A stretch of 64,000 nt of DNA from Halomicroarcula saliterrae. GTDB lineage: Archaea; Halobacteriota; Halobacteria; Halobacteriales; Haloarculaceae. Below are positions 27,172-64,000 of this stretch, piece by piece (the first letter of the stretch is position 1; the number at the start of each line of letters is the position of its first letter). The notes below the pieces were generated by a model. That model did not search any database. It had not been told where the DNA came from and saw only the letters and a program-made list of their open reading frames with translations. The stretch covers positions 1 to 64,000 of the forward strand of contig NZ_JAMQON010000004.1 of assembly GCF_031624395.1 (NCBI RefSeq), in the 5' to 3' direction. Made by a program: the position numbers and the translations under genes.

Positions 27172-27261
27172 TTACACGCTCCGCCTGCCGTTCTAACCGC
27201 TCGCCGGGGTCGAGTTCCAGTATACCTGTTCGGGGAAACCCCGAAGCGGCGCCGCCGAACG
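27172..27261 (-). pseudogene. Decayed DUF4157 fragment behind the first partner gene
   Basis: Immediately after the stop of the partner gene at 27262, the minus strand reads GGAASGFPRTGILELDPGERLERQAERVI. This aligns with the piece of intact DUF4157 proteins right after their HELAH motif (GGAVSMLPQ..LEIDPDERLERQAEQTAERVM). The frame is open but has no start, no HELAH and no tail. I read it as the remains of an older cassette. The same arrangement is seen at 46835 and 58549. Confidence 0.75.
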
Positions 27262-28163: not shown

Positions 28164-29666
28164 TCAGTCTCTCCTGCTTTTACCGACACCCTGCGAGTCA
28201 GAGGTTTCAGTCTGCCATTCGCCTTGTTCAACCTGCCGTCGAATCTGCTCGGCACGGTCATCGAGCGAGCCACTGGTCCGGTCCCACAGCTCGCGGAGCG
28301 TGACTTCGGCAACTTCGACGCCGATAATCGCTGGTCCGAGTTTGAGGCCCAAGATACCCTTGATGACGTTCCAAGAGAGTTCTTCCCAGTAGCTCGGGTC
28401 GATATTCCCTTTTAAGGCTTCCCGCTGGTCATCTGTCAGCGCGATTTGGTCGAGGTCTTCGCTGATTGCCGAGGAAAGCGAACGAATCTCTGCTCCGAGG
28501 TCCTTCGGTTTGTCTGCCAGCGTTCCGAGCGATGTCTCGGTCTCCATTCCCGGATGCGAATCAGTGTCGGTAGACCGAGATTGATCCATCTCGCCACGGG
28601 CGATGGCCGCGTCGACTTCTGCCTCAGTGAGTTCGCTTTCTTTGTTACCTCTCTCGATGATGTCCTGCGCGACATTGTGGAGGAAACTGATTCGGTTGGC
28701 GTTCTGTGACTCCCGGAATTCGCCCACCTCGCCGGATTCGTTCTCGGCCTCGAACAGCGCAAGCGCATGGAACACCTTGTCTTCTGCCAACCGCTGCACG
28801 TGCACGTCCGAACCGCGCATCCCCGGCACACCGATTACACCACCCCGCATCACCCGCTCGGCCGTTTGTTCGGCCTGCCGTTCTAACCGCTCGTCGGGGT
28901 CGATTTCCAGTGTCCCGGATTGGGGTAGCATCGAGACGGCACCCCCCGTTTGCTGTCTCACGTGCGCTAACTCGTGGGCCAGCACGTGCTGTCCCTCCGG
29001 AGTTTCGGGGTCGTACTCACCGGTGTTGAACGCGACGTGATTCCCGACGGTAAAGGCCCGTGCGTTGATATCATTGCACGCTTTGGCCGCTTGCGGTCCG
29101 GTGTGGATGCGCACGTCGCCCAGACTGTCGCCCATTCGCTCCTCGATGGCCTCCTGAATCGAATCGTCCAGCTGCCGGCCCGGTGACCCGATTACGTCCC
29201 GAACGCTGTCGGGCACACCGGCGTCGCCGGCTTTCGGCGAGTCCAGATGGGCGTCCCGCGAGCGCTGGACAGAGCGGGCGTTCTGCCGCTCGACGTTCCA
29301 TGGCACTTGGGGCGGGCGCTCGCGCTGGCGCTCGCGGAACTGCTCCATGTCCCGGGGTTTGCCCATCGTCTCGACGGTCATCCCCTCGTCGGCCCAGCGG
29401 CGGACCTTCCCGGCGCCGTGGCTGTCGACCAGCCGCTGGACCTGGACTTCCTGACCGTCCCGGTACGGCTCGAACCCACAGAGGTCCGCCGCCTCTTGGC
29501 GGGAGAGCGTCGGCCCCCGGCGCGTCGACGACCCGCCGTCGTCGTCCCGCCAGTCCGGATACCTGTCGTAGTCGAACGAGGACGCCGCCTCGTAGCGGGT
29601 GTCACCGCGCGAGGACGCCGACTGGTCGCTTCGGGACGCACTCTCCCGCTCGGTCCGGAATCCCAT
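28164..29666 (-). CDS. DUF4157 (eCIS-core) protein A, candidate effector
   Basis: This 500-aa protein has a long N-terminal region (1-150, with GFEPYRDGQEVQVQRLVD and RQNARSVQRS also found in the other copies). The DUF4157 core follows (about 155-290, with HVLAHELAHVRQQTGG, a zincin-like HExxH motif, and DPDERLERQAEQTAERVM). The C-terminal tail (about 300-500) is unique in the window and has a hydrophobic helix near 430-453 (IKGILGLKLGPAIIGVEVA). DUF4157 proteins are strongly associated with contractile injection systems and are thought to be or carry effectors. Its last residues (SQGVGKSRRD) recur in copy C, and the same region carries the RBS of the partner gene. Confidence 0.85.
   Translation of the reverse strand: MGFRTERESASRSDQSASSRGDTRYEAASSFDYDRYPDWRDDDGGSSTRRGPTLSRQEAADLCGFEPYRDGQEVQVQRLVDSHGAGKVRRWADEGMTVETMGKPRDMEQFRERQRERPPQVPWNVERQNARSVQRSRDAHLDSPKAGDAGVPDSVRDVIGSPGRQLDDSIQEAIEERMGDSLGDVRIHTGPQAAKACNDINARAFTVGNHVAFNTGEYDPETPEGQHVLAHELAHVRQQTGGAVSMLPQSGTLEIDPDERLERQAEQTAERVMRGGVIGVPGMRGSDVHVQRLAEDKVFHALALFEAENESGEVGEFRESQNANRISFLHNVAQDIIERGNKESELTEAEVDAAIARGEMDQSRSTDTDSHPGMETETSLGTLADKPKDLGAEIRSLSSAISEDLDQIALTDDQREALKGNIDPSYWEELSWNVIKGILGLKLGPAIIGVEVAEVTLRELWDRTSGSLDDRAEQIRRQVEQGEWQTETSDSQGVGKSRRD
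28169..28175 (-). promoter_or_regulatory. Ribosome binding site of partner A
   Basis: AGGAGAG on the minus strand, inside the last codons of the DUF4157 gene, lies 7 nt before the partner ATG at 28161. An equivalent AGGAGGG precedes partner C. Such strong sites are uncommon in haloarchaea and imply coupled translation. Confidence 0.6.
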
Positions 29667-40101: not shown

Positions 40102-43100
40102 CTAAAATCCCCTCCGTTGGCGTTCGATCCGCCGTTTCCGTTCGAGCTTCCGATACAGGATATCCACCAGCCGGTCGACGTCGGCGTTGAGCTGCATCGA
40201 CTGCTCGCTCAACTGGACGTCGATGCCGCGGAGCCGGCTGTCGGCCCGTTCAGTGGTGTCGGCCGACCGGTCGGCCGGCCGGTCCGACAGCGCGGACCCG
40301 ACGTCACCGTCCGGTCGCCCGCGGCTGTCGAACGACGACTCGCCGAAGACGTCATCCGAGGGCCCGTTTCTCCCGGTACCGGGGTCCGTCGGGGAGGCCG
40401 GGCCGCGTCTGTCGGATCCCCCGGCAACCGCCCCGCCGGCGGCGCCAGCCCGCTCGCTGGGGAACTCCGCCGTGTACGACTGCGATTTCTCGCTGTCCTC
40501 CAGCGTCTCGGCGGTGCTACCGCTCCGGGCGGACGCTTCGGCCGTATCGGTGGACTGTCCCTGTTGGTACACGAGAGAGGTGTCGGTCTGTGGCTCCGGT
40601 GTGGTCGTCCGCTCGGTACTACTCGCGTGCGCTCCGTCGTCCGATACGTTGTATTCAGACACTTCTCTATTATATTTAATAGTTTCGGCAAATGACTTTT
40701 CGCCGGTCGACAGCACGCCGACCTCCGTCGACGGGCGACGCCGTGACACGGTAGCGGTCGCGTCCGCTGTCGCCGAGCGGTCCCGAGCAGTCGTCAGTGT
40801 CCCGACAGACGCTCGGTCGCCGACCGGCGTCTGACGGTCCGGTTCCGAACCTGCCACGGGCTCGCGGCGGCCGGGTTGTGAAGGAGTACCGGCAACGGCA
40901 TTCCCGTCGACCGTTCCGTCGGTCGCTGCCGACTCGCCGGGCGGCGTCCGGCGCACGTCAGTTCGGGCACTGCCACCGGTCTCGGTGCCAGCGTCGTCCG
41001 ACCCTTCGACGCCGTTTCGGCCGGTGGCCCCATCCACGCGTGGCCCGCCAGCAGTGGGGTCGGGAGTCGTCTTCGCGGAGCGCTGTCGGTCGACAGTGTC
41101 GACGCTCGTCGGAGAAAGTTGTCGGGTAACGGTGTCGATGCTCGTCGCGGCGAGCCGGTCGGCACCGTCGACGGTCGTCACAGAGCGCTGTTGGTTGTCG
41201 GTGTCGACGCTCGGCGCGGAACGCTGGTCGGCAGCGTTGACGGTTGGCGCGGAACGCTCTCGGGTGGCGGTGTCGACGCTCGGAGCGGAACGCTGGTCGG
41301 CAGCGTTGGCGGTTGGCGCGGAACGCTGGTCGGCAGCGTTGGCGGTTGGCGCGGAACGCTGGTCGGCAGCGTTGGCGGTTGGCGCGGAACGCTGTCGGGT
41401 GACGGTGTCGACGCTCGTCGCGGAACGCTGGTCGGGAGCGTTGACGGTTGGCGCGAAACGCTCTCGGGTGACGGTGTCGACGCCCGGCGCGAAACGCTCC
41501 CGGTTGGCGGTGTCGGCGGTCGGCGCGGAACGTTGGTCGGCAGCGTTGACGGTTGGTGCGGAACGCTCCCGGTTGGCGGTGTCGGCGGTCGTCGCGGAAC
41601 GCTGTGGGTCGACAGCGTCGACGCCCGTCATCGCGGGTTGCCGTCGGTTGGCGGTGTCGACCCCAATCGTCGCAGACCGGTGGCCGTTCGACGCATCCGG
41701 CGGCAGCGAACCCAGCCGCCATCGCCGGGCCGGCGTCTCGTCCGCGGACTGTCCAGACTCGACAGCGGTGGCCAGCGGACTGGCAGAGGACCGACTGCCG
41801 GCCTCGGCCCGCTGGACGGCGTTGGTAGACCGTGGGTCCCCGACCGGCGACTCGGCGACGGTCCCCGCCAATGGGTCTGACTCGGATGGTGGGCTGGACT
41901 GCTCGACGCTAGTCGGGACACCCTCTCGGCGGTTGGACCGGTCCTCGGCGTCGACCGGAGACGGGTCGGTGCGGCCGGTGTCTGGAGTGGTCGACCGGCC
42001 GGCCGGCGTCCCCGTCGCCGGGTCGTGAGTCGTCGGACGCTCGGTAGCTTCGGAAGCGGCCTGTGACCTCGCCGGGCCACCGACGGACGTCCGCGGCGCC
42101 TGCAACCGGGAGATGTGGCCGTTCCCTCTGGGCGTATCGACTGCCCCCCCTAGTGAGGTGGCCGGCGTCTCACTGCTGGACTGGGGCAGGGTCGATACCC
42201 TCGCCGGTGAGGGAGCGGACCCGTCGGCGTCGCCGCTGACGGGCGCGTACTCGCGTCGGTGTGGCGTCCCGAGCATCGACTGGGCCCGGCTCGTCCGCTC
42301 GACGACACCGGGACTGACGCCGGAGACCGCAGCGTCGGTGCGAGTCAGGCCGGTCGCACCATCCAGCGGGGACCCCGCCCAGCCCGCCGACGGGTCCCCA
42401 GCGGGAGACCGCCCGTTGGTGTCGGATACGCCGAAGTGGGCAGCGGCCGAGGACCGTCGAAGCGGCGCCGTATCGGGGCGGTTCCGGCTGTCAGCGTCGG
42501 CACCCGACATCGCATCGACTTTCGACCCGTCACGTCCCGCCGCCCCCGACACCGGGTCGACGTCTCCGGGTTCAGCTACCGCCACTTCCGACACCGGGTC
42601 GTCGACATCGTGCCCCGACGACGCGACTCGGGAGCCAGCGGTGGAGACGCCGGTCTCCTGCCGTGCCACCGAGGAATCGCCCCCAACAGTGTTGCCCGGC
42701 GTCGTCGCGCGGGACGCAGCAACTCGGCGCGGAGCCGACGGCCGCTGTGTATCCCCGGCGTCCGACGAGGGCTGCTGGCGGGTCACGCGACGACGCGTCG
42801 AATCCGGCAGTCGCTGCACCGCTGTGGCCCGCGAGTGGGACCCGACAGCGCGTCGGCCCGGCGCCGCAGTCGTGACGTCGTGGACCGACCGCGTTCGGTG
42901 TTCCAGATCGGGCGTGGCGAACTCGCCGCCGGTGTGTGGCCGGGTGGTCGCGCGGGTTGACGACTGGCCGGTTCCACCGGTGTCGACGCTCGCCGACGAC
43001 CACTCGTCGTCGGCAGTGACGGGGCGCTCGCGGTACTGGTCGGTCGTCGACAGCGGGCGGCCAGCTGACGGGGGCGACTGCGCAGGCGTCTCCGATTTTT

Positions 43101-46834: not shown

Positions 46835-47020
46835 CGTGACCGGGTCGATAGCTAGTCGCTCTCCGGAGGGAGTATCGATACGGCCCCGTCCGGTTGCTGA
46901 CGGACGTACGCGAGTTCGTGTTAGAGCTGCTGGCCCTCAGCAGATTCGGGGCCGTATTCGCCCCGGTTGAACGCGATGTGGTTCCCGACAGTAAGTATTC
47001 TTGCGCCGAGATTTCTGCGG
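46835..47020 (-). pseudogene. Decayed DUF4157 fragment behind partner B
   Basis: The minus strand reads LTVGNHIAFNRGEYGPESAEGQ, then a stop codon one codon short of HELAYVRQQPDGAVSILP, then another stop. This aligns with the DUF4157 core of the full copies, including the HExxH region (HELAY here, so the second His is lost), with one codon deleted. It has at least two stop codons and no C-terminal tail. It lies 80 nt after the partner B stop, the same place relative to the partner as the other two fragments. Confidence 0.85.
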
Positions 47021-47101: not shown

Positions 47102-48052
47102 TTAGACGCTCTCCCAGTCGATGGTAGCCTCTAGTTGGTAGTACGGCTGCCACGCGTCCTCGTAGCGCTGGTACCAGTCAGTCAGACGGTTCAGGCCCGG
47201 CCCGGTCACCTGGAACGGTTCCGGTGGCGTGACACCCATCTGGACGTGGATATCGCGGACCTGGCATCGGAGGTGACGAACGAGATATTGTTGGAGGTCG
47301 GTGAGCGAGTCGGGGTCGTGTGGAATCACTTCCAGCTGCACGTCTGGACCGCGGTCGATGTCCGGCTCGTCGTTGTGTTCGCCGTAGAGGTCGTCGCCGA
47401 TTTGCCATTGAACGTGCAGCCCAGACGTGGCCACAATCCACTGACTCGGCGCGACAGTCTGAATCTGTCCACTGGTGATCCCGTGCTCGCTTGCCAGCTC
47501 GGTCAACTCACGGGTGATATCAGCCGTGTCCCCGTCGCTGATACGCTGTTCGGCCTCTGTGAGATACGCCTCCATGGATTCGTCAGGGAGTTCCCCGACT
47601 TCGGCATTACCGAGACCGAGATAGAGGTCCTTCGCATACTGGTAGAACACGTCCTCCGTGTAGAGTTTATCGGGAATCTCTATAACAGGGTCTCGGTCGT
47701 CGTAATGATGTTTAAGTTGCTGGTAAATGTCGCCGAACTGCCGCTCGAAGCTCTCGGTATCCAGCGCGGCGATTACCAGCGTTGCCAAGGCGACCCTGTG
47801 GGGATATTCGCTCTCGCGAATCGTCGGATACCCGCGTTCCTTTGCGACGTAATACTTGGCGAAATGGCGGGCCTGGGTGACATTGCGGACCCCTGCTGGC
47901 GACCGTTCGCTCGGGTTGTCCGAGTATCTTTCCTGCAGATGACCATTTATTTCCCCATTGTAGAGCACACCAATCTTATGTTTGGCATCGTTGTTATCGT
48001 ATATTGTGACGCCATATCCTTTGTCCGTCTCTTTCTCGATTTCACCCTCCAT
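47102..48052 (-). CDS. Cassette partner protein B (unrecognised family, paralog 2)
   Basis: This 316-aa protein has the same architecture as partner A but is well diverged: GYGVTIYDNNDAKHKIGV near the start, QARHFAKYYVAKERGYPT centrally, and HLRCQVRDIHVQMGVTPPEPF near the end. The middle third is variable between paralogs. Its ATG overlaps the TGA of DUF4157 gene B by one base (TGATG), and an AGAGGT lies 10 nt before. It is soluble and acidic, with no signal peptide. It may bind the DUF4157 protein as chaperone/adaptor, or act as its immunity protein; the sequence does not decide. Confidence 0.8.
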   Translation of the reverse strand: MEGEIEKETDKGYGVTIYDNNDAKHKIGVLYNGEINGHLQERYSDNPSERSPAGVRNVTQARHFAKYYVAKERGYPTIRESEYPHRVALATLVIAALDTESFERQFGDIYQQLKHHYDDRDPVIEIPDKLYTEDVFYQYAKDLYLGLGNAEVGELPDESMEAYLTEAEQRISDGDTADITRELTELASEHGITSGQIQTVAPSQWIVATSGLHVQWQIGDDLYGEHNDEPDIDRGPDVQLEVIPHDPDSLTDLQQYLVRHLRCQVRDIHVQMGVTPPEPFQVTGPGLNRLTDWYQRYEDAWQPYYQLEATIDWESV

Positions 48053-49332
48053 CAGTAATCGACCTCTTGGCTCTGGTCCCCAGTCATCTCGTTGACCTGT
48101 GCGGAGATGTTCTCGATGAACTGGTCGTCGCTCGCGAGCTGGTCGGCGAGAGTGGAGTCCGCTGCGACTCGCTCCGCGAATTCCTCGCTCTGGGTAACGC
48201 GAGCTTCGAGTTTGTCGACGACTTCGGCGGGCACGCTCTGGTCGCTCTTGAACGTTTCAGCGATGCTCTGATACTCTTCGGTGGCGGCCCCGATTCCGAA
48301 CATGAGTCCCAGTGAAAGCAGATTCACGCCCGGAACCATCTGCGAGGCGGCGAACGTGCTGGCGGTACCGACGCCACCGATCAGCCATTTCGCCATCTCG
48401 GGCATCGTCCCGTCGCTGCCCTCGAAGTCGATATCCTCTGTCTCCGATCCGTTCAGCGCCTCCTCGTTGACGTTCTCGACGGCAACAGTTCCGTCTTCTC
48501 CGAAACCGGTCTGTTTTGCTGCTCGCTGAATATGAACGCCAGACCGCCGCATCCGCTGGATACCCAGCGTTCCCCCGCGCATCACCCGCTCGGCGGTCTC
48601 CTCGGCTTCGCGCTCCAACCGTTCATCTGGGTCGATAGCTAACTCGCCCTCTTGGGGCAGCATCGACACGGCTCCACCGGTCTGTTGTCGCACGTGCGCT
48701 AACTCGTGGGCCAGGACGTGCTGGCCCTCAGCAGATTCGGGGTCGTATTCGCCCCGGTTGAACGCGATGTGATTACCCACAGTAAAGGCGCGGGCGTTGA
48801 TGTCGTCACAGGCTTGCGCTGCGGAGGGCCCGGTATGGATGCGAACGTCGCCGAGGCTGTCGCCCATCCGGTCTTCCATCGCGCGCTGGACGCTCGCGTC
48901 CAACTGCTGGCCGGACGACGAAATCACGCTTCGGACCGACTCAGGTACCTCTGTGTCACCGGCACGGCTGGACTCGTGATGTGCGCCCCGGCTCCGCTGG
49001 ACGGACCTGGCGTTCTGCCGTTCGATCTCTCTTGGCACCTCCGGCGGCCGCTCGGCCTGCCGTTCGCGGAACTGCTCCATGTCCCGCGTCTTGCCCATCG
49101 TCTCGACGGCCATCCCCTCGGCGGCCCACTGGCGGACCTGGTCGGCGCCGTGTTGCTGGGCGAGCCGCTGCAGTTTCGTCGCCTGTCCGTCCCGATACGT
49201 CTCGACCCCGAACTGGTGACCCTCGCCCGGGTCTCGGCCAGCCGACCGGCGCTGGTCCCCGTCGTCCTCGCGGGGGTCCATCGCCGCCGACCCGGCCTTC
49301 TCTCGGGCCTCGCTCACTGACCGGAAGCTCAT
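48052..49332 (-). CDS. DUF4157 (eCIS-core) protein B, candidate effector
   Basis: The protein is 426 aa from ATG 49332 (MSFRSVSEAREKAGS); the upstream extension to 49821 overlaps the ATPase gene antisense and is rejected. The N-terminal region (1-140) is nearly identical to copy D. The core (about 150-270) has HVLAHELAHVRQQTGG at about 202-217. The unique tail (about 285-426) contains a long hydrophobic run (KWLIGGVGTASTFAASQMVP, then GVNLLSLGLMFGIGAA; about 312-348) and an acidic coiled region after it. The tail could insert in membranes (inference). It is divergent from the ATPase gene and so next to the motor of the machine. Confidence 0.87.
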   Translation of the reverse strand: MSFRSVSEAREKAGSAAMDPREDDGDQRRSAGRDPGEGHQFGVETYRDGQATKLQRLAQQHGADQVRQWAAEGMAVETMGKTRDMEQFRERQAERPPEVPREIERQNARSVQRSRGAHHESSRAGDTEVPESVRSVISSSGQQLDASVQRAMEDRMGDSLGDVRIHTGPSAAQACDDINARAFTVGNHIAFNRGEYDPESAEGQHVLAHELAHVRQQTGGAVSMLPQEGELAIDPDERLEREAEETAERVMRGGTLGIQRMRRSGVHIQRAAKQTGFGEDGTVAVENVNEEALNGSETEDIDFEGSDGTMPEMAKWLIGGVGTASTFAASQMVPGVNLLSLGLMFGIGAATEEYQSIAETFKSDQSVPAEVVDKLEARVTQSEEFAERVAADSTLADQLASDDQFIENISAQVNEMTGDQSQEVDY

Positions 49333-49356
49333 CGTTGAGTTAATTTCATATCCTTC

Positions 49357-49367
49357 GCACATAATTG
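49357..49367 (-). promoter_or_regulatory. TATA-like box of DUF4157 gene B
   Basis: The minus-strand element CAATTATGTGC lies 25-35 nt before the ATG at 49332 and matches the elements at 29688 and 62503. It lies in the 100-nt divergent region shared with the ATPase gene. Confidence 0.55.
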
Positions 49368-49432
49368 TTCGTTGTATTGCAGAACACGCAATCGAGGGGC
49401 GGCCGGGAGCGCCCGATTGGGGACCGACCACC

Positions 49433-51598
49433 ATGGCATACGAGAACACGATAGACCATCTACTGGACGAACTGGGCTGTCTCGACTTGCTGGTGCGCGA
49501 GCTCCACGACGGGCGCCAGGGGGTGCTCTCCGGGGAGTTCGACCTCGCCGGGCGCCTCGACGAGCCGGCGTCGGCGACTGCGTCGGAGAGAGGACTGGTC
49601 GTCCCTGACGGGATAGCCGAGGAACTCCGGCGCCATCGCGAGCGCATCGACGACGAACGAGCGGCGGCTATCGAGGCCGGCGTGACCCTCCGGCTCGACA
49701 CGCTCGCCGAGGCGTTCGGTCTCGACAGACAGCATCTGGATATCCTGCTCCTGGCCCTGCTCCCGGACGTGGACCCTTCGGCCGCCGCGGTGTTCGACGC
49801 GCTCCACAACGACGCGAGCAAGCAGCGCCCGACCGTCGGATTGGTCGCGGACCTCTGTTCGACGACGCCCGAGCAGTTCCTGACCGCGACGGCGCTGTTC
49901 GGCCAGGGCTCGCCGCTGCGGGAGTACGGACTGCTCGTGCTGGACCCGCCCGAGAGCGACGGTCGGGCGGGGTCGAATCTCGACTACGCCCTGCGCGTGG
50001 ATGACCGCATCGTCACCTACCTGCTGAATCAGGGCGGCGTCGACCCGGCGCTTCGGCCGCCCCCCGGCGCCGAAACCACCGACGCCGTCGACGGATACCT
50101 CGCCGAGGTGCGGGCCGAGGCCACGCTGGACGGACTGCTCGTGCCCGACCGACGGTGCGAACGGCTGGCGAGCCTGCGCGAGGTGAGCACTGCCGGCCGC
50201 CGTCTGTACTTCCACGGACCCCGGGGCAGCGGTCCGCGACGGGCCGCCGAGGCTCTCTGTGGGACCGACCGCTACGTCCGGGTCGACCTCCCGAGAGTGC
50301 TGGCCGCCGACGCCCTCGACGCCGTCGTCCGCGAGGCCGCGCTGCAGGCCTGCCCGGTGGTCGTCACCGGCGCGGACGCGGTAACGGGCCCCGACAGCGA
50401 CCGCTCACTGTCGGCCGTTATCGACCGCTTTTCGCCCGTGATCGCGGACCTCTTTTTCGTCGGCGAGTCCGCGTGGACCCCCGCGGGAACGAGCCGCCAG
50501 CCCGTCGACGCCATCGTCGGCTTCGAGCGCCCGACCATCCCGCTCCGGCGGACGTTCTGGCGGGACCATGCCGACGAACTGCCCGACGACCTCGACCCCG
50601 AGCGCATGGCGAGCACCTTCGACCTCACGCTCGGACAGATGGAGAGCGCGCTGGCGGCCGCCCGCACGCTGGCTGGTGAGGACGACCTGACCGTCGAACA
50701 CGTGCGGGAGGCCTGTCGGGCCCAGTCGTCTAGCGATCTGGCGGACCTCGCCCAGCAGATTACGCCCTCGGTCGAACGCGGGGACGTCATCCTCCGGGAC
50801 GGGACCGACCGGAAACTCGACCAGCTACAGGCCCACATCGCCAACCGCGGGCGCATCTACGACGACTGGGGGTTCCGAGCGAAGGAGGACAACGCGGGCG
50901 TGGTGGCGCTGTTCAAGGGCAAGCCCGGCACCGGGAAGACGATGGCCGCCGAGGCGCTGGCCAACGCCGTCGGGATGCACATCTACAAGATCGACCTCTC
51001 CAGTGTGGTGAGCAAGTACATCGGCGAGACCGAGGAGAACTTAGAACAGATCTTCCAGGCCGCCGAGCAGGCAAACGCCATCCTGCTGTTCGACGAGGCC
51101 GACTCCGTGTTCGGCGACCGCGCGGAAGTGTCGGACGCGACGGACCGCTACGCCAACGCCGAGGTGAACTACCTCCTGCAGCGTATCGAGACCTACGACG
51201 GAGTCATCCTCCTGACGACCAACTTCGCCTCCAACATCGACGACGCGTTCACCCGCCGCATCAACCACACCATCCGCTTCGAGCGCCCACAGGAGGCGAC
51301 CCGTGAGGCCATCTGGGCGGGGGCGTTCCCCGGGGAGACCCCGACCGAGGGAATCGACGCGGAGTGGCTCTCGCAGTTCGAGTTCAGCGGCGGCGAAATC
51401 GCCTCGTTGGCCAAGCGCGTCGCGGTCGAGGCCGCCAGTTGCGACGCCGACGCCATCCGGATGAGCCACGTCGTCCGCGTGCTCGAACGGAACTACCGGG
51501 AGGCCGGCCGCGTCGTCCGCCGCTCGGAGTTCGAGCCCTACTGTGACGCGCTCGCCGAACCACCACAGGAGTCGGGCGACCGGCGAGCCCGACGCTGA
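49433..51598 (+). CDS. AAA ATPase of the contractile injection system (Afp15-like)
   Basis: This 721-aa ATPase has a complete C-terminal AAA module: Walker A GKPGTGKTMAAE (about 496-507), Walker B ILLFDEADSVFGDR (about 550), sensor VILLTTNFASNIDDAFTRRI (about 590) and arginine-finger residues. An upstream P-loop-like region at about 258-275 (FHGPRGSGPRRAAEAL) lacks the Lys-Thr of Walker A and a proper Walker B (VVVTGADAVTGPDSD), so it is a degenerate first domain. Such ATPases are needed for assembly or remodelling of eCIS particles. The first 27 codons are duplicated in decayed form at 62580. Confidence 0.93.
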   Translation: MAYENTIDHLLDELGCLDLLVRELHDGRQGVLSGEFDLAGRLDEPASATASERGLVVPDGIAEELRRHRERIDDERAAAIEAGVTLRLDTLAEAFGLDRQHLDILLLALLPDVDPSAAAVFDALHNDASKQRPTVGLVADLCSTTPEQFLTATALFGQGSPLREYGLLVLDPPESDGRAGSNLDYALRVDDRIVTYLLNQGGVDPALRPPPGAETTDAVDGYLAEVRAEATLDGLLVPDRRCERLASLREVSTAGRRLYFHGPRGSGPRRAAEALCGTDRYVRVDLPRVLAADALDAVVREAALQACPVVVTGADAVTGPDSDRSLSAVIDRFSPVIADLFFVGESAWTPAGTSRQPVDAIVGFERPTIPLRRTFWRDHADELPDDLDPERMASTFDLTLGQMESALAAARTLAGEDDLTVEHVREACRAQSSSDLADLAQQITPSVERGDVILRDGTDRKLDQLQAHIANRGRIYDDWGFRAKEDNAGVVALFKGKPGTGKTMAAEALANAVGMHIYKIDLSSVVSKYIGETEENLEQIFQAAEQANAILLFDEADSVFGDRAEVSDATDRYANAEVNYLLQRIETYDGVILLTTNFASNIDDAFTRRINHTIRFERPQEATREAIWAGAFPGETPTEGIDAEWLSQFEFSGGEIASLAKRVAVEAASCDADAIRMSHVVRVLERNYREAGRVVRRSEFEPYCDALAEPPQESGDRRARR

Positions 51599-57258: not shown

Positions 57259-57454
57259 ACGAATGTAAGTATATTGATTGTAAGGTCGTTTACTGATAAA
57301 ATATTCGGTCAGTCGTCGGATGAAAGCCGTTCCGGCCCGTCGTCGCGAACTGGACTGTGTAGCGGCGAGACCGCACAGTATTTATTTCGCCGGTAGCCTT
57401 GTGATAGCAACCGACCTGCACGGGACACCGGACAACCACACGCTATTCAGCATC

Positions 57455-58444
57455 ATGAACGTCACCGACCACACCGAACACGGCCGGGAAATTACGCTGC
57501 GTATCACCGACCACACCGACGCCGACCACCGTCTGACACTCACGCGGACGGGGACAGTAACCGACCACTGGTGCGATCAGTACCCCAGCGACGACGACCC
57601 GACGCCGCTCGAACGCGAACGGCTTGCCCGGGCTGAGCGGTTCGCCAGGTACTACCTCAAACGGCGGTCCGACGTCGAGGCCGTGGAGCCGTACACCGAC
57701 GGCATCACCGACCCTGACCCGCTGGTCGTCACTGCACTCGTGCTGGCCGCGATGTCACAGGAGACGCTCACAGAGCGCCTCGGAACCTACTACGAGCAAC
57801 TCACCGCGTCGCAGGCCGACGACAGCCCGCCGGTGTCGCCGCCCCAGACCACAGCGGCCGCGGAGTGCCAGTCCGTCGAACAGGACATCTGCCTCACCGC
57901 CCCCGCCGAGGCGGTGGCCCAGTTGAGCGACGTCCTACACGAGATAGACGGACTGGCGACTGTCCGCCACGTGCTCGACGTCTGTCCGGACCGCGGGGAT
58001 TCGGACCTGCTCGAGCGACTCGGTCGACTCCTTCCGACCACGGCGACCGACGGCGATGGGGCCGGGCGCGGCGAGCGGTTCCTGCGGCTCGCCTCGCCGC
58101 TACGGGTCCACTGGGAGACGGACGGCCCGACCCGTGTCGAATACGGTGACGACATCGGTTCCGACGCGGACACCCCCATCAGCGCGCGCCTCCAGCTGAC
58201 GGCCGCCCATCGACCGGTCATCTCCGTGGCCGCCTTTCAGCGGACGCTCGTCGACCACCTGCGATGTCAGGCCCGTGACTGTTACGTGGGAATGGGCCTG
58301 CGGCCACCGAGCCACCTCCGGGTCACCGGTCGGGGCATCAGCGCCTGCACCGACCGATACGAGCATCTCGACACACTCCAGAACTACCACGACGACCACG
58401 CCATCGTCGACTGGACGCAACTGGGCGCACGCCCGGACCGATAG
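57455..58444 (+). CDS. Orphan cassette partner protein (unrecognised family, paralog 3)
   Basis: The protein is 329 aa from ATG 57455. This start aligns its beginning (VTDHTEHGREITLRITDHTD) with the ITGENDERVGL block of the paralogs; the frame is open to 57320, with a TATA-like AGTATTTATT near 57378. It has AERFARYYLKRRSD for the central block and HLRCQARDCYVGMGLRPPSHL for the C-terminal block. It is the only family member on the plus strand and has no DUF4157 gene beside it. It is more divergent in the N-terminal half. It could be a partner that lost its effector, or a constitutively made adaptor or protective copy. Confidence 0.75.
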   Translation: MNVTDHTEHGREITLRITDHTDADHRLTLTRTGTVTDHWCDQYPSDDDPTPLERERLARAERFARYYLKRRSDVEAVEPYTDGITDPDPLVVTALVLAAMSQETLTERLGTYYEQLTASQADDSPPVSPPQTTAAAECQSVEQDICLTAPAEAVAQLSDVLHEIDGLATVRHVLDVCPDRGDSDLLERLGRLLPTTATDGDGAGRGERFLRLASPLRVHWETDGPTRVEYGDDIGSDADTPISARLQLTAAHRPVISVAAFQRTLVDHLRCQARDCYVGMGLRPPSHLRVTGRGISACTDRYEHLDTLQNYHDDHAIVDWTQLGARPDR

Positions 58445-58548: not shown

Positions 58549-58614
58549 TCAGGGCAGCATCGACACCGCGCCGCCGGCTTGTTGACGGACGTGCGCTAAC
58601 TCGTGTGCGAGGAC
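58549..58614 (-). pseudogene. Decayed DUF4157 fragment behind partner C
   Basis: The minus strand reads VLAHELAHVRQQAGGAVSMLP and then a stop, an almost perfect copy of the DUF4157 core around HELAH, beginning 4 nt after the stop of partner C. Only 21 codons remain and no tail follows. Position and content match the fragments at 27172 and 46835. Confidence 0.85.
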
Positions 58615-58618
58615 CCCA

Positions 58619-59587
58619 TTACGCCTCTGCCCTGACAGTGTCACGGTCCCAGTCGATGTCCGCGTCCGGATCGTGGTAGGGCTGATAGAGGTCGTAGTAG
58701 TCGTACCACGTCGCGTGGTCGTAGCTGCCCATGCCCTGAATTCGGAACTCCGACGGCGGTGTCACACCCATACCGAGGTAACAGTCCCGAACCTGACAGA
58801 ACAGCCCGCGAACGAGCGACTGCTGGAACGCGTCGATGTTCTCGGGCTCGAACGGGAGCATCTCGATTCGGGCGTCGGGTTCGCGGTCGATGCCCGGTCG
58901 GTCGGTCCACGCCGTGTGGTACTGGCCCGCCGCGTCGTCCCAGTGGACGTGGACGCCCGAAACCGCCTCGATCCAGAAGTCCTCAGCAGTCGCCGGGAGG
59001 TCGCTCCCGGATTTCCCGGCGATGTCGTGAGCGTCCGCGAGTAGACCCAGCAGCGACCGGTCGTTCACACCGCCTCTCGCTAGATCACCCAGATACTCCC
59101 GCACCTCGGCAACGTCGAGCAATTCTTCCAGCATCTCGACCTGTCTGTCGTCCAGCCCGAGGTAGACATCCTGCTGGTAGGTGACGTTTGCCTGGGAGAC
59201 GCCGTCCGGGAGCGTGACGGGACGGGGCGAGTCCGTCGAGTGACTTCGAACCTGTCTGTAGAGGTCGCCGAAATACGACTCTACGCTGTCGGTACTGAGG
59301 CCGGCGGCCACGAGAGCCACCCCAAGGATTCGGTCGGGGTTGCGGTGCGGGTCGAGCGTTTCGTAGCCTTTCTCCCGGTAGACGTAGTACTTCGCGTATC
59401 GCCGGGCCTGGTTGACGTGTTCGTTCTCTGCGTTGGTACGTTCGGCCGGGTCGTCCGGGTAGCCGTCCTGCTCGTGGTAGTTGATTTTACCGTCGAACTC
59501 CATCTCGATGACGTGCTCAGCGTCGTTGTTATCGATGACACTTAAACCAACGCGCTCGTCGTTTTCGCCCGTGATGATCCCATCCAT
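58619..59587 (-). CDS. Cassette partner protein C (unrecognised family, paralog 4)
   Basis: The protein is 322 aa from ATG 59587; a TTG two codons earlier is less likely, because an AGGAGGG lies 7 nt before this ATG. It is the closest relative of partner A at the N-terminus (ITGENDERVGLSVIDNNDAE, then QARRYAKYYVYREKGYET). The C-terminal block is GLFCQVRDCYLGMGVTPPSEF, followed by YYDLYQPYHDPDADIDWDR. The middle differs strongly from the other copies. It starts 2 nt after the truncated DUF4157 gene C. Confidence 0.8.
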   Translation of the reverse strand: MDGIITGENDERVGLSVIDNNDAEHVIEMEFDGKINYHEQDGYPDDPAERTNAENEHVNQARRYAKYYVYREKGYETLDPHRNPDRILGVALVAAGLSTDSVESYFGDLYRQVRSHSTDSPRPVTLPDGVSQANVTYQQDVYLGLDDRQVEMLEELLDVAEVREYLGDLARGGVNDRSLLGLLADAHDIAGKSGSDLPATAEDFWIEAVSGVHVHWDDAAGQYHTAWTDRPGIDREPDARIEMLPFEPENIDAFQQSLVRGLFCQVRDCYLGMGVTPPSEFRIQGMGSYDHATWYDYYDLYQPYHDPDADIDWDRDTVRAEA

Positions 59588-59589
59588 CT

Positions 59590-60288
59590 TCAATCCCTCC
59601 TGCTTGCACCGACACCCTGAGACTCGCCCACACCAGTCTGAGCCTCGACTTTCTTGACCGCACGGTCGGAGATATGACTCACCCAGTCGGTTGGTAGTTC
59701 TGCAGGTCCGATATCGTGGAGCGCGGAGCGGACCTGAGTGACCTGCCGTTGCTGGTCGTACGCTTCGTCGGTGACGTTCTGGATGAACGGACCCGCGATC
59801 GGTATAGCACCCACGGCGCCAGTCGTCGCCTTGGCCGCCATGTCCTGCTTGCTGAACGCTCCGCCGTGGAACCCGAGATACTCGGCGACTCGCTTCGCTA
59901 TCGACGAGATTTGCCCGTCGCTGCCCTGCAGGTCCATCTGGTCGAACTCTTCGCGGGCCTGTTCCAGTTGCTCCGCCTCCGGCATCCGCTGGACGTGCAC
60001 CTCACCCCGCCGCATCCGCTGGATACCCAGCGTTCCCCCGCGCATCACCCGCTCAGCCGTTTGCTCGGCTTCCCGTTCGAGGCGTTCGTCCGGGTCGATA
60101 GCCAGTTCGCCATCCTGTGGCAGCATCGACACCGCACCGCCGGTCTGCTGGCGCACGTGCGCGAGTTCGTGGGCCAACACGTGCTGTCCTTCCGCAGATT
60201 CTGGGTCGTACTCGCCCCGGTTGAACGCGATCTGATTACCCACGGTGAACGCACGGGCGTTGATGTCGTCGCAGGCCGTGGTAACCAT
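59590..60288 (-). CDS. Truncated DUF4157 protein C (core plus tail, no N-terminal region)
   Basis: This 232-aa protein begins MVTTACDDINARAFTVGN, so the first 170-180 residues of other copies are absent. HELAH is at residues 40-44 with HVRQQTGG after it. The unique tail (about 115-232) has a glycine-rich hydrophobic stretch ATTGAVGAIPIAGPFI near 150-170 and ends SQGVGASRRD as copy A does. The ATG lies 12 nt after the partner D stop, so it may be translated. It may be an orphan tip module kept for recombination, or a dead fragment. Confidence 0.75.
   Translation of the reverse strand: MVTTACDDINARAFTVGNQIAFNRGEYDPESAEGQHVLAHELAHVRQQTGGAVSMLPQDGELAIDPDERLEREAEQTAERVMRGGTLGIQRMRRGEVHVQRMPEAEQLEQAREEFDQMDLQGSDGQISSIAKRVAEYLGFHGGAFSKQDMAAKATTGAVGAIPIAGPFIQNVTDEAYDQQRQVTQVRSALHDIGPAELPTDWVSHISDRAVKKVEAQTGVGESQGVGASRRD
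59595..59601 (-). promoter_or_regulatory. Ribosome binding site of partner C
   Basis: AGGAGGG on the minus strand lies 7 nt before ATG 59587, inside the end of the truncated DUF4157 gene. It decides the start of partner C over a TTG at 59593. Confidence 0.65.
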
Positions 60289-60300
60289 GGTGCCTTCAGC

Positions 60301-61245
60301 TTACACCGGGGAAACGTAGCCGGAGATACGGGCTTCGTGGTCGAAGTACGGTTCGTAGAAGTCGAAGTGACGGTATTTGCCGGTGTACTTGTACCGGCCG
60401 TGGCCCAGCACTTTGTACGGTTCGGGTGGCTCAAGCCCCATACCAATGTAGCAATCCCGAATCTGACAGACGAGGTTGTGACCGACGACGTAGCGGAAAT
60501 CGTCGCACTCGTACGTCGACGGGAGGATCTCGATTCGGGCATCGGGCTTGCGGTCGAACTGGTCCTGACTTTCGATTGTCCGTTCTTCGTTCGTGTCTTC
60601 GTAGTACATCGTATCGATTCCCGATACGCCTTCGATAGTGAGTTCTGTCCACGTTACGTCAGACGTCTCACTGGTTCCGCCGACGAGTGACGTAGCTTTC
60701 GAGAGCATCCCCTGGCCGGTCGCCGTTGCAAGCTCTTCCCGTTCAATCTCGCCAATAACTTCCGTCGCCGGTCGGTCAAGTTGTGACTGAATCGTGTCGA
60801 GGTCGTCCTCGAGATAGACGTTTTGCTTGTAGATCAGGAACTCCTCCTCGTAGACCTCGTCCGGGAGATCTAACGGCGGCAATGCGTCGGTCCGGTCGTG
60901 ACTCACCGATTGTTCGTGCAGCGTCTGGAAGTACTCCCAGAACTGCTTGTCCGTGAGATCCAGTAGTGCGATCAGTACCGCCGCAAGTCTGTCTGGATTC
61001 TCCGATGGTGGGACCGTGTCATACCCTTTCTCGCGGTAGACGTGATACCGGGCGTATCGACGGGCTTGCGAGAATGTTTCATCTTCAATATTGCTTCTGT
61101 CTGATGGGGTATCGGGGATAACGTCCTCCTTGTGATGGAAGATATTTCCCTCTGAGTCCAAACCAATCTCATGCTCATCTCCACGATTGTCTTCGACAAG
61201 GAGCCCGACTCCTTTTTCATCTTCACCAACGATTTGTGCGTTCAT
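60301..61245 (-). CDS. Cassette partner protein D (unrecognised family, paralog 5)
   Basis: This 314-aa protein shares the family architecture: a diverged N-terminal block (VGEDEKGVGLLVEDNRGDEH), QARRYARYHVYREKGYDTVP centrally, and NLVCQIRDCYIGMGLEPPEPY near the end, then a YRHFDFYEPYFDHEA tail. It is acidic and soluble. It begins 2 nt after DUF4157 gene D, with a GAGGT 8 nt before the ATG. The truncated copy C starts 12 nt after its stop. A role as chaperone, adaptor or immunity factor is possible. Confidence 0.8.
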   Translation of the reverse strand: MNAQIVGEDEKGVGLLVEDNRGDEHEIGLDSEGNIFHHKEDVIPDTPSDRSNIEDETFSQARRYARYHVYREKGYDTVPPSENPDRLAAVLIALLDLTDKQFWEYFQTLHEQSVSHDRTDALPPLDLPDEVYEEEFLIYKQNVYLEDDLDTIQSQLDRPATEVIGEIEREELATATGQGMLSKATSLVGGTSETSDVTWTELTIEGVSGIDTMYYEDTNEERTIESQDQFDRKPDARIEILPSTYECDDFRYVVGHNLVCQIRDCYIGMGLEPPEPYKVLGHGRYKYTGKYRHFDFYEPYFDHEARISGYVSPV

Positions 61246-61247
61246 AA

Positions 61248-62480
61248 TTAGGACCTCAATCCAGAGAACCAGTCACTTTCTTCTACTCCTTTGTCTCCCT
61301 CACGTTGCCCCTGCTCGTCATCATCAGCACCAAGCAGTCGGTCTTTCACTCGGGAGTAGGCATCATTAATCGTTTCTTTCCCAGCAGCGACACCAAAGCT
61401 AACTGTGCCGGCAGCGATAGCAGGTACTGCGACCTCGGGATTGGTAGCCGTGTTTGCGAGCTGGTCTTGCAAGGCGGGTTGGGCCATCGCACGACCGGCA
61501 GCAATTGTTGCCGCAGTTACGCCCGTGCCCATCATAGCAGTCGCCTTCTCCGACCAACCCGAGTGGACCTCATCCTTGAGTGAACTGAGTTCCTGTCGAA
61601 GGTTGTCGACTTCTTCTTTGAGTTGTCGGACCCCCGAATAGTTGTTCTCGACGCTGACCTCCGCTGGTGTCCGCTGAATGTGGATATCCGATTTCCGCAT
61701 CCGCTGGATACCCAACATCCCCCCGCGCATCACCCGCTCAGCCGTTTGCTCGGCTTCCCGTTCGAGGCGTTCGTCCGGGTCGATAGCCAGTTCGCCCTCT
61801 TGGGGCAGCATCGACACGGCTCCACCGGTCTGTTGTCGCACGTGCGCTAACTCGTGGGCCAGGACGTGCTGGCCCTCTTTTGAGGAGGGGTCGTACTCGC
61901 CGCGGTTGAACGCGATGTGGTTGCCGACGGTGAAGGCGCGGGCGTTGATGTCGTCACAGGCTTTCGCTGCGGACGGCCCGGTGTGGACGCGCACGTCGCC
62001 GAGGCTGTCGCCCATCCGGTCTTCCATCGCGCGCTGGATGCTCGCGTCCAACTGCTGGCCCGAGGAGGAAATCACGCTTCGGACCGACTCAGGCACTTGC
62101 GTATCGCCTGCCTTCGAGTCGTTCCGGTAGGCATTGTGACTGCGCTGGACGGACTTGGCGTTCTGCCGTTCGATATCTTTTGGCACTTCGGGCGGCCGCT
62201 CGGCCTGCCGTTCGCGAAAGTCCGCCATGTCCCTCGTCTTGCCCATCGTCTCGATTGGCATGCCTTCGGCAGCCCACTGGCGCACCTGGTCGGTACCGTG
62301 CTGTTGTGCTAACCGTTGCAACACCGTCTCGTGTCCGTCTCGGTACGGTTCGACCCCGAACTGCTGACCCTCGCCGGAATCTCGGCCGGCCGACCGGCGC
62401 TGGTCCCCGTCGTCTTCGAGGGGGTCCATCGCCGCCGACCCGGCCTTCTCTCGGGCCTCGCTCACTGACCGGAAACTCAT
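61248..62480 (-). CDS. DUF4157 (eCIS-core) protein D, candidate effector
   Basis: The protein is 410 aa from ATG 62480 (MSFRSVSEAREKAGSAAMDP). The N-terminal 200 residues are almost the same as copy B, which implies a recent duplication or gene conversion. The core has HVLAHELAHVRQQTGG at about 203-218. The unique tail (about 280-410) starts with a coiled coil (VRQLKEEVDNLRQELSSLKD) and then hydrophobic glycine/alanine-rich helices (MMGTGVTAATIAAGRAMA, AVPAIAAGTVSFGVAAG). The frame runs upstream to 62618, but the B homology fixes this start. The tail may act on membranes (inference). Confidence 0.87.
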   Translation of the reverse strand: MSFRSVSEAREKAGSAAMDPLEDDGDQRRSAGRDSGEGQQFGVEPYRDGHETVLQRLAQQHGTDQVRQWAAEGMPIETMGKTRDMADFRERQAERPPEVPKDIERQNAKSVQRSHNAYRNDSKAGDTQVPESVRSVISSSGQQLDASIQRAMEDRMGDSLGDVRVHTGPSAAKACDDINARAFTVGNHIAFNRGEYDPSSKEGQHVLAHELAHVRQQTGGAVSMLPQEGELAIDPDERLEREAEQTAERVMRGGMLGIQRMRKSDIHIQRTPAEVSVENNYSGVRQLKEEVDNLRQELSSLKDEVHSGWSEKATAMMGTGVTAATIAAGRAMAQPALQDQLANTATNPEVAVPAIAAGTVSFGVAAGKETINDAYSRVKDRLLGADDDEQGQREGDKGVEESDWFSGLRS

Positions 62481-62502
62481 TGTTGGTTTAATTTTATACT
62501 CT

Positions 62503-62515
62503 GCGTATTTAATTG
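62503..62515 (-). promoter_or_regulatory. TATA-like box of DUF4157 gene D
   Basis: CAATTAAATACGC on the minus strand lies 23-35 nt before ATG 62480, equivalent to the elements before copies A and B. Confidence 0.55.
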
Positions 62516-62579
62516 TTTGTTGTATGGCAGAACACGCAACTGAGGGGCGGCCGGGGGAGCCCGACCGAAGACTGAGAAA

Positions 62580-62660
62580 ATAGCATATGGGAACACCGTC
62601 GGTCATCTGCTGGATCAAGTTGATATTCTTAACACCTTAGTGAGCGAACGCCGCAATGGA
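62580..62660 (+). pseudogene. Decayed copy of the first 27 codons of the injection-system ATPase
   Basis: From 62580 the plus strand reads ATA (for the ATPase's ATG) then AYGNTVGHLLDQVDILNTLV, which lines up codon for codon with AYENTIDHLLDELGCLDLLV of the ATPase at 49433. The upstream segment 62521-62579 also resembles 49373-49432 (shared gcagaacacgcaa and aggggcggccggg). The start codon is lost and homology ends near 62660. It marks the end of the duplicated block. Confidence 0.85.
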
Positions 62661-62798: not shown

Positions 62799-64000
62799 CT
62801 ACATGCTATCTGATAATCCACTATCGGCTATCCCGATAGAGGATGGCATGTGTGTGCTATCGCCACTTAGGTGATCTGGGACCTCTGTATAGGTTGCTTG
62901 GCTAAGAGTGCCATCAAGGACACCTACCTCGTATTCACTCGCCCGAACCCGAAGTGGGAACCATCCCTCCTCGTCAACACCCAACAGCGCTTCTGAGTAG
63001 CCATCGTCGTCGTTCCCAGCCTTCGCCGAACGAACCCAATTCACTTCTCGCTCACTAAGTCCAAACCACTCGGCCAGCTGCTCTGCTGCCTCGTCCACAC
63101 GATGAATTAGCTTCATCGAACAGAGGTTCGCAATCGTCCGGGCTTCAGGAGTGAGTGCAAACTCGCCACCAGTCTGGGTAATGAACTGCAACGAGAGGTC
63201 GTAGTGTCGGCTGTGTCGAACTGCCGTCTCCAGAAAGCCAAGCGAGGTCGAATCGCCCATGAGATAGTGCGCTTCATCAATGACGAACACGACGCGTTTC
63301 TTGGTCTGTTTCGCACGCTCATAGACTGCGTTGAATAACACCTGCATCATGAGACTCGTCTCTGTCTGACCGCGGGTTCCCTCCTCTTGGTGTAAATCGA
63401 GGTAGATTACATCGTTCGTGAAATCGAACTGCGTGGGTTCGGCGAGGTTCGCTAAGTCACCGCCCTCACGGAACGAAGGGCGCAGGTCAATGAGCAAGGA
63501 CTGGACGTCATTCTTCACACGGTCTTGCTCGCCACTGGTGACATAACCAAATTCACCCGGGTCATCAAGGATGTCTTCGAGGACCGCGATAACATCGCGA
63601 ATCGTCGGCGAGGGGTTTGCGTGGGTCGCCGGATCTTTCGTGATGCCCTGGCGCTCGTATGCCTCCTGAACAGCACGTCGAAGCGTCTGTTTGCGGTCTT
63701 TGAGTGGACTGCTCGCAACGTTCTCGAAGAACGTCTCAAAGAACGTGAGCACCCACGAGATTTGCTCGGACCACGGATCGATATCCGGAACGGATTCCAA
63801 GATATCTGTCGGCGTTGGCTGCAATTCCAGTGGGTTAAACCCACGTGAGCCACCGACAGTCACACGTTCGCCACCGAGGGCTTCGTTCACACCGTCAAAG
63901 CCCTCCAGTGGATCAAGCATCACTATCATCGAATCCTCGTCGTACATCGCCCGACGGACGAGTTGGAGTTTCGTCGAGAAGGATTTCCCCGCACCGAGTT
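62799..64000 (-). CDS. VirB4/TraC-like conjugation ATPase, C-terminal part (runs off the window)
   Basis: At least 400 aa of a P-loop ATPase are present. The Walker A motif LGAGKSFSTKLQLVRRAM lies at the right edge (63948-64000), Walker B is RVVFVIDEAHYLM, and the later SLQFITQTGGEFALTPEART is typical of VirB4/TraC/HerA-type T4SS ATPases. The likely role is to energise DNA or protein transfer in a conjugative element. The sequence is clearly lower in GC than the rest, with more A/T-ending codons, suggesting foreign origin. The 5' end is outside the window. No further conjugation gene is visible. Confidence 0.85.
   Translation of the reverse strand, partial: LGAGKSFSTKLQLVRRAMYDEDSMIVMLDPLEGFDGVNEALGGERVTVGGSRGFNPLELQPTPTDILESVPDIDPWSEQISWVLTFFETFFENVASSPLKDRKQTLRRAVQEAYERQGITKDPATHANPSPTIRDVIAVLEDILDDPGEFGYVTSGEQDRVKNDVQSLLIDLRPSFREGGDLANLAEPTQFDFTNDVIYLDLHQEEGTRGQTETSLMMQVLFNAVYERAKQTKKRVVFVIDEAHYLMGDSTSLGFLETAVRHSRHYDLSLQFITQTGGEFALTPEARTIANLCSMKLIHRVDEAAEQLAEWFGLSEREVNWVRSAKAGNDDDGYSEALLGVDEEGWFPLRVRASEYEVGVLDGTLSQATYTEVPDHLSGDSTHMPSSIGIADSGLSDSM

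What the first reader, a model, noticed from the sequence alone, without database searches (positions are those of the whole stretch)
62481..62660. Cassette D is a duplicate that carried part of the ATPase gene with it
The upstream region of D copies the divergent region between B and the ATPase and continues into 27 decayed ATPase codons. The N-terminal 200 residues of B and D are almost the same. The D/C array therefore arose by duplication from the B locus, then tail exchange.
Basis: seen in the sequence. Interest (0 to 1): 0.72.

Follow-up and report, generated by a model that had tools for sequence, protein, structure and literature searches.

The report
Copied archaeal toxin gene, swapped tail
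A salt-loving archaeon copied the front half of one of its injected-toxin genes, together with the first 27 codons of the neighbouring ATPase gene, and later gave the copy a different toxin tail with its probable antidote gene, showing that archaeal injection systems renew their weapons in much the same way as bacterial polymorphic toxins.

Summary
62481-62660 aligns base by base with 49333-49513: the whole B/ATPase divergent region (74% identical) plus ATPase codons 1-27 (62%), with the start ATG changed to ATA. The ATPase part alone beats 2000 of 2000 shuffles, and there is no other such place in the genome. Every other ATPase start found in related haloarchaeal loci is intact and head-to-head with an effector, so D is the derived copy.

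D is a DUF4157/eCIS-core effector of a haloarchaeal contractile injection system. Its front is sister to B's front, but its tail and 315-aa partner gene are closest to Natrinema modules (partner 69% identical; a pB+pD clade is rejected, AU p 2e-50). Identity falls to background right after the IHIQR box, 57 residues past HELAH.

Corrections: the B/D similarity is patchy, an old duplication overlaid by gene conversion (identical tracts B=D, C=D, B=C in the core); C is a 5'-truncated displaced module, not shown to come from B; all four effector partner genes in the window are followed by core remnants (30 of 60 across haloarchaea, 9 of 1623 control ORFs), the signature of C-terminal displacement. 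A known kind of evolution, here mapped in an archaeal system.

The parts
61248..62480 (-). Effector gene D (410 aa, start ATG at 62480): N-terminal region, eCIS_core/DUF4157 with HELAH, variable tail
   Evidence: PF13699 E 1.7e-31; ungapped with B over codons 1-270, 84.9% nt and 87.8% aa
62481..62583 (-). Promoter region of D, copy of the B/ATPase divergent intergenic region 49333-49432, including the box CAACAAACAATTAAATACG (62504-62522)
   Evidence: 74% identity to B upstream; the box occurs only upstream of B and D in the window, 0 expected; a similar box lies upstream of Haloferax effectors
62580..62660 (+). Relic of the first 27 codons of the CIS AAA ATPase gene (start ATG to ATA, no stop); homology ends here
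   Evidence: no other such relic in fetched loci; second-best place in the genome is B upstream only
61671..61715 (-). Junction box of D (LGIQRMRKSDIHIQR): end of the conserved front; tail begins below 61671
   Evidence: within-genome pairs 76% identical over 180 nt before it, baseline after it
61792..61875 (-). Gene-conversion tract identical to B (contains HELAH)
   Evidence: 28 consecutive matching polymorphic sites, 0 of 20000 permutations
61722..61794 (-). Gene-conversion tract identical to C (60037-60109)
   Evidence: 26 consecutive matching polymorphic sites, 0 of 20000 permutations
60301..61245 (-). Partner gene pD (314 aa), probable immunity protein to the D tail
   Evidence: 69%/68% to Natrinema gari/altunense partners next to D-type tails; 53 of 62 effectors with room have such a gene directly downstream; AF2 pLDDT 87, no fold match
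59590..60294 (-). Module C: 5'-truncated core (from residue equivalent about 168) plus a different tail, directly behind pD
   Evidence: PF13699 matched only from position 31; 87% nt to D over 267 nt
58619..59593 (-). Partner gene pC (324 aa)
   Evidence: same family as pA, pB, pD
58552..58614 (-). Core remnant (HELAHVRQQAGGAVSMLP) just behind pC
   Evidence: 95% over 21 aa, E 5.5e-7
48052..49332 (-). Effector gene B (426 aa), head-to-head with the ATPase; source-type of D
   Evidence: PF13699 E 4.6e-32; head-to-head layout conserved in other haloarchaea
49433..51598 (+). Intact CIS AAA ATPase gene (721 aa), the only one of its kind in the genome
   Evidence: PF22977 E 3.8e-33, PF00004 E 1.5e-28; single full match in own genome
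47102..48052 (-). Partner gene pB (316 aa)
46842..47013 (-). Frameshifted core remnant behind pB
28164..29666 (-). Effector gene A (500 aa) with partner pA (27262-28161) and core remnant (27176-27256)
57320..58444 (+). pF, stand-alone diverged partner homologue at the border of the sheath operon
   Evidence: 57% orthologue at the same position in Haloferax

Best explanation
D is a full-length effector gene of a haloarchaeal contractile injection system (DUF4157/eCIS-core type). Its front (promoter, N-terminal region, core) descends from a duplicate of the ATPase-linked effector B; the copied segment ended 27 codons inside the divergent ATPase gene, which has since decayed without a start codon. 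Afterwards the core took part in homologous exchange: gene conversion among B, C and D, and replacement of everything 3' of the LGIQRMRxxxVHVQR box by a foreign tail plus its partner gene. The displaced older module (C-pC, then a core scrap) was pushed downstream. In the likely working model, the front delivers the protein through the injection system, the hydrophobic helical tail is the toxic part, and pD protects the producer. Shown by sequence: duplication, relic, chimerism, conversion tracts, displaced modules. Inferred: secretion, toxicity, immunity.
For: Base-by-base homology through promoter and ATPase start. Other ATPase starts found in related loci are intact and head-to-head with an effector, so the truncated one is derived. 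B and D fronts are sisters (95/83), with E of the same genome next (100/100). pD and the D tail are closest to Natrinema modules; pB+pD clade rejected, AU p 1.9e-50. Core mosaic tracts with permutation p < 5e-5, < 5e-5 and 0.0009. Sharp junction in 87 within-genome pairs. 30 of 60 partner genes are followed by a core fragment against 9 of 1623 control ORFs; 4 of 4 effector partners in the window. A second locus of the same genome has the same anatomy with recognisable toxins: deaminase tail + SUKH immunity, then a displaced colicin-D tail starting at the same junction box + colicin immunity. Haloarchaeal DUF4157 proteins are secreted CIS-dependently and four toxin/downstream-gene pairs protect in Haloferax volcanii (PMC11566945).
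Against: The relic (62%) is more diverged from the own ATPase than the same codons of the Haloferax ATPase are (72%); neutral decay explains this, since fourfold sites in unconverted parts of B/D differ by about 40%, but a foreign source is not excluded. Substitutions lean slightly to third codon positions (9:7:14, chi-square p 0.27). The D tail has no recognised toxin domain and its AF2 model is poor (pLDDT 45). Immunity function of pD is positional inference only.
Confidence: 0.75

Rival explanations
1. D is the surviving edge of a second, once complete ATPase|effector unit (segmental duplication or acquisition of a second CIS locus) that was deleted down to 27 codons of its ATPase, rather than a cassette copied alone.
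For: D lies at the outer edge of the CIS locus, directly against conjugation-type genes. Gene-block order differs between relatives: Y-B-X in the window and Natrinema L038/L048, X-A-Y-B in Haloferax, so large rearrangements do happen. The relic ends bluntly at 62660.
Against: No other CIS gene fragment is found beyond the relic, and no second CIS ATPase exists in the genome. The sequence cannot separate this from a single-cassette copy.
Confidence: 0.3
2. The D front was acquired horizontally from another haloarchaeon's ATPase-linked effector and only later homogenised with B by gene conversion.
For: Patchy B/D identity with high divergence between converted tracts. Isolated effector-partner cassettes travel on plasmids, e.g. 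Halobacterium sp. BOL4-2 beside a transposase.
Against: B, D and E form one clade excluding all other genomes (100/100). The promoter is alignable base by base only with B; Haloferax shares only the core box.
Confidence: 0.2
3. The upstream similarity is functional convergence or constraint (a shared divergent promoter and regulator site), not a duplication relic.
For: The middle 40 nt are the best conserved (about 88%), and a promoter box is conserved across genera.
Against: Identity continues in frame through 27 ATPase codons in a place with no ATPase gene and no start codon, far above shuffles; a promoter needs none of this.
Confidence: 0.02
4. The partner genes are not immunity proteins but adaptors, chaperones or second toxin components needed by the hydrophobic tails.
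For: One conserved family (25-42% identity in the window) serves very different tails; pF is kept alone, next to the sheath operon, in this genome and Haloferax.
Against: Enzymatic tails have classical immunity genes in exactly the same slot; partners co-vary with tails; protection by downstream genes was shown for haloarchaeal DUF4157 toxins (PMC11566945).
Confidence: 0.3

Closest known systems
Haloarchaeal T6SS-like contractile injection system of Halogeometricum borinquense with DUF4157 toxin-immunity pairs (Zachs et al. 2024, PMC11566945)
   Same: CIS gene cluster in a haloarchaeon with several DUF4157 effector genes, each followed by a partner gene, some in the middle and some at the edge of the cluster; others elsewhere in the genome
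   Different: The passages read there describe toxicity and secretion; duplication relics, core gene conversion and displaced modules were not among them. Homology of their immunity genes to pD could not be tested here
Rhs and CDI polymorphic toxins with C-terminal displacement and orphan modules (Jackson 2009, cited in PMC5361080; Zhang 2012, PMC3482391; Poole 2011, PMC3150448)
   Same: Constant front, sharp junction, variable toxin tail, immunity gene directly behind, displaced older modules downstream preceded by front remnants
   Different: Front is an eCIS core (DUF4157) of an archaeal injection system, not Rhs repeats or CdiA; most tails pair with one new partner family
Sequential displacement of T6SS effector-immunity modules in Vibrio (Kirchberger 2017, PMC5361080)
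   Same: Successive module insertion leaving arrays of older genes 3' of the current effector, together with homologous recombination
   Different: There the old effector is lost and immunity genes are kept; here core remnants, tails and partners are kept
PVC-metallopeptidase toxins of haloarchaea noted by Zhang et al. 2012 (PMC3482391)
   Same: Variable C-terminal modules on PVC-type delivery fronts in Halogeometricum
   Different: The passages found were a general remark without breakpoints, tracts or duplication history

Membership tests
eCIS/archaeal T6SS DUF4157 effectors | eCIS_core (PF13699) domain with HExxH | tested here: met
   D residues 143-220, E 1.7e-31, HELAH present
eCIS/archaeal T6SS DUF4157 effectors | Encoded next to contractile injection genes (sheath, baseplate, VgrG/LysM, AAA ATPase) | tested here: met
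   Window proteins match the annotated sheath, baseplate, VgrG/Pvc8 and LysM genes and the AAA ATPase of the Haloferax CIS plasmid; AAA and WHD domains
eCIS/archaeal T6SS DUF4157 effectors | Secreted or injected by the system | not testable with these tools
   Shown for other haloarchaeal DUF4157 proteins only (PMC11566945)
Polymorphic toxins with C-terminal displacement | Conserved front and unrelated tails separated by a sharp junction | tested here: met
Polymorphic toxins with C-terminal displacement | Tail exchange: front and tail with different phylogenies | tested here: met
   Front B+D 95/83; pD with Natrinema, pB+pD rejected
Polymorphic toxins with C-terminal displacement | Displaced older modules with front remnants downstream | tested here: met
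Polymorphic toxins with C-terminal displacement | Recognisable toxin domain in the tail | tested here: not met
   D tail: no Pfam or NCBIfam toxin domain; met for E of the same genome (Toxin-deaminase, and a displaced Colicin_D)
Polymorphic toxins with C-terminal displacement | Cognate immunity protein encoded directly downstream | tested here: inconclusive
   pD sits in the slot and co-varies with the tail, but it matches no known immunity family
Membrane-acting (pore-forming) toxins | Membrane-spanning toxic segment | tested here: inconclusive
   Tail of D helical with moderate hydropathy maximum 1.43; partner-linked tails average 1.32 against 0.89 for others; AF2 pLDDT 45

The most novel reading that the evidence does not exclude
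The ~315-aa partner family is a previously undescribed immunity superfamily for a new class of membrane-acting archaeal toxins. Its tail-partner modules circulate among haloarchaeal families by recombination in the eCIS core, which gene conversion keeps uniform within each genome as a landing site, and copies of the ATPase-linked front seed new expression sites.
Probability: 0.45. Interest if true: 0.65.

Novelty: new member of a known kind. Interest (0 to 1): 0.42.

Why it matters
It gives base-level evidence that archaeal injection-system effectors evolve by the front-constant, tail-exchanged and displaced-module route known from Rhs, CDI and Vibrio T6SS. It also offers a marker, the ATPase relic, of how a new effector site is born. 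It points to the exact exchange box (LGIQRMRxxxVHVQR) and to an undescribed partner family that can be tested as immunity proteins in Haloferax volcanii.

Tried and rejected
Looked for ATPase relics upstream of other effectors in the fetched haloarchaeal loci: none; every other hit is an intact head-to-head ATPase or a weak scattered match. Haloferax dispersed cassettes share about 66 nt of promoter with their ATPase-linked copies but no ATPase codons. Inverted or direct repeats and tRNA genes at the 62660 break, as signs of a transposon or integrase: only one 12-nt hairpin at 62816-62844, no tRNA. D structure: low confidence, not used for fold search. Partner: no Pfam, NCBIfam or PDB sequence match worth naming; confident model but no Foldseek match with E under 0.3, and best VIA Z 5.8 over 76 residues, within the range of chance arrangements. 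pHBOR03 of H. borinquense did not appear among the plasmid matches, so homology of pD to the tested immunity genes was not checked. The 2019 archaeal polymorphic-toxin paper was not held.

Full report
WHAT THE WINDOW IS. The window is the start of a 450-kb contig of a haloarchaeon (G000:C4). It carries a contractile injection system locus, about 27-62.7 kb, whose proteins match the annotated sheath, baseplate, VgrG/LysM and ATPase genes of the Haloferax larsenii CIS plasmid. Cassettes A, B, C and D are effector genes with the eCIS core domain PF13699 (DUF4157, HELAH motif), each followed by a roughly 315-residue partner gene of one family (pA-pD, 30-42% identical). To the right of D lie conjugation-type genes.

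OBSERVATION. B and D align without a gap from the start codon to residue 270 (84.9% nt, 87.8% aa; 173 of 200 N-terminal residues). Upstream, homology runs on through the whole divergent intergenic region and 27 codons of the ATPase, 62481-62660 against 49333-49513, at 74% and 62% identity. The ATPase start is ATA and the reading frame is otherwise open. The ATPase part alone exceeds all of 2000 dinucleotide shuffles. In the whole genome only B's own upstream region matches this segment.

WHICH COPY IS THE COPY. Head-to-head effector|ATPase layout is found in many other haloarchaeal loci, and this genome has one CIS ATPase. The truncated, start-less ATPase piece next to D is therefore the derived state. 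No other relic of this kind was seen in the loci examined. In Haloferax, effector genes scattered over the genome share about 66 nt of promoter with their ATPase-linked copies and then diverge, so promoter-plus-front copying may be general; the long D copy is the clearest case.

AGE AND GENE CONVERSION. The B/D similarity is uneven. Differences at fourfold-degenerate sites are 1/20 (codons 1-40), 7/24, 9/18, 7/28, 1/18 (codons 201-236) and 7/15. The relic's 38% difference equals the roughly 40% fourfold divergence of the unconverted parts, as expected for neutral decay since one old duplication. In the core three copies form a mosaic: D equals B over 61792-61875, D equals C over 61722-61794, and B equals C over the next 34 nt. 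Permutation tests give no exceedance in 20000, none in 20000, and p = 0.0009. Recent homologous exchange between cores of the same genome is thus shown; its direction is not.

TAIL EXCHANGE. The fronts of B and D are sisters (95/83) and, with the second-locus effector E, exclude all other genomes (100/100). The tails are unrelated: D's tail resembles tails in Natrinema altunense, N. gari and Haloferax, and its partner pD is 69% and 68% identical to the partners next to the Natrinema tails. A tree holding pB and pD together is rejected (AU p 1.9e-50). The identity drop sits at the LGIQRMRxxxVHVQR box, residue 270, 57 residues beyond HELAH. The same drop is seen in 87 within-genome pairs from haloarchaea: 76% mean identity in the 180 nt before the box, baseline after it.

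DISPLACED MODULES. C begins directly behind pD with a core lacking its first half. Core scraps also lie directly behind pA, pB and pC. Across haloarchaea 30 of 60 partner genes are followed within 250 nt, on the same strand, by a core fragment, against 9 of 1623 other ORFs. The second locus of this genome shows the same order with named toxins: E with a Toxin-deaminase tail, a SUKH immunity gene, a displaced Colicin_D tail beginning with the same junction box, a colicin immunity gene, and a core scrap. This is C-terminal displacement as described for rhs and used to explain Vibrio T6SS arrays (PMC5361080; PMC3482391).

HOW IT LIKELY WORKS. Established knowledge: in Halogeometricum borinquense DUF4157 proteins are released in a CIS-dependent way and several are toxic unless expressed with the gene behind them (PMC11566945). 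Inference for D: promoter and front give expression and delivery; the helical, moderately hydrophobic tail is the active part; pD protects the producer. Partner genes stand behind 53 of 62 effectors with room, while the deaminase and colicin-D tails have classical immunity genes in the same slot, which favours immunity. pD has a confident predicted structure without a known match. Function was not testable here.

WHAT STAYS OPEN. It is undecided whether D was copied as a cassette or is the stump of a second ATPase|effector unit, and a foreign source later homogenised with B is not excluded. Gene-block order differs between Haloferax and this genome plus Natrinema, so large rearrangements occurred. 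The origin of C's core is mixed and not specifically from B.

VERDICT.

Noticed in passing
L009:8826-11827 (own contig 360.8-363.8 kb): Second effector locus: eCIS core with deaminase tail + SUKH immunity, then a displaced colicin-D tail + colicin immunity, then a core scrap.
   Followed up: yes
27262-28161, 47102-48052, 58619-59593, 60301-61245, 57320-58444: A ~315-aa protein family without Pfam, NCBIfam or PDB fold match, predicted with high confidence (pLDDT 87), next to most haloarchaeal CIS effectors.
   Followed up: partly
62504-62522 and 49356-49374: A promoter-like box, CAACAAACAATTA or CAACAAACAATATATA, recurs upstream of CIS effectors in Haloferax and this genome.
   Followed up: partly
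L125:9844-14075 (Halobacterium sp. BOL4-2 49.8-kb plasmid): A lone effector-partner cassette beside a transposase on a small plasmid; no other CIS gene was annotated in the ~25 kb viewed, suggesting cassettes travel alone.
   Followed up: no
G058:C2:173865-205366: A same-family genome with 13 eCIS-core matches in about 32 kb, a very large effector array.
   Followed up: no
40102-45441: 1779-aa Ser/Thr/Asp-rich protein with imperfect tandem repeats (41070-41690) inside the CIS locus, between LysM and the LTD membrane protein genes.
   Followed up: no
57320-58444: pF: a stand-alone diverged partner homologue kept at the border of the sheath operon in this genome and Haloferax, on the opposite strand.
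   Followed up: partly
62799-63998: VirB4/TraG/HerA-like ATPase and further conjugation-type genes start right beside D; the CIS locus borders a conjugative-type element.
   Followed up: no
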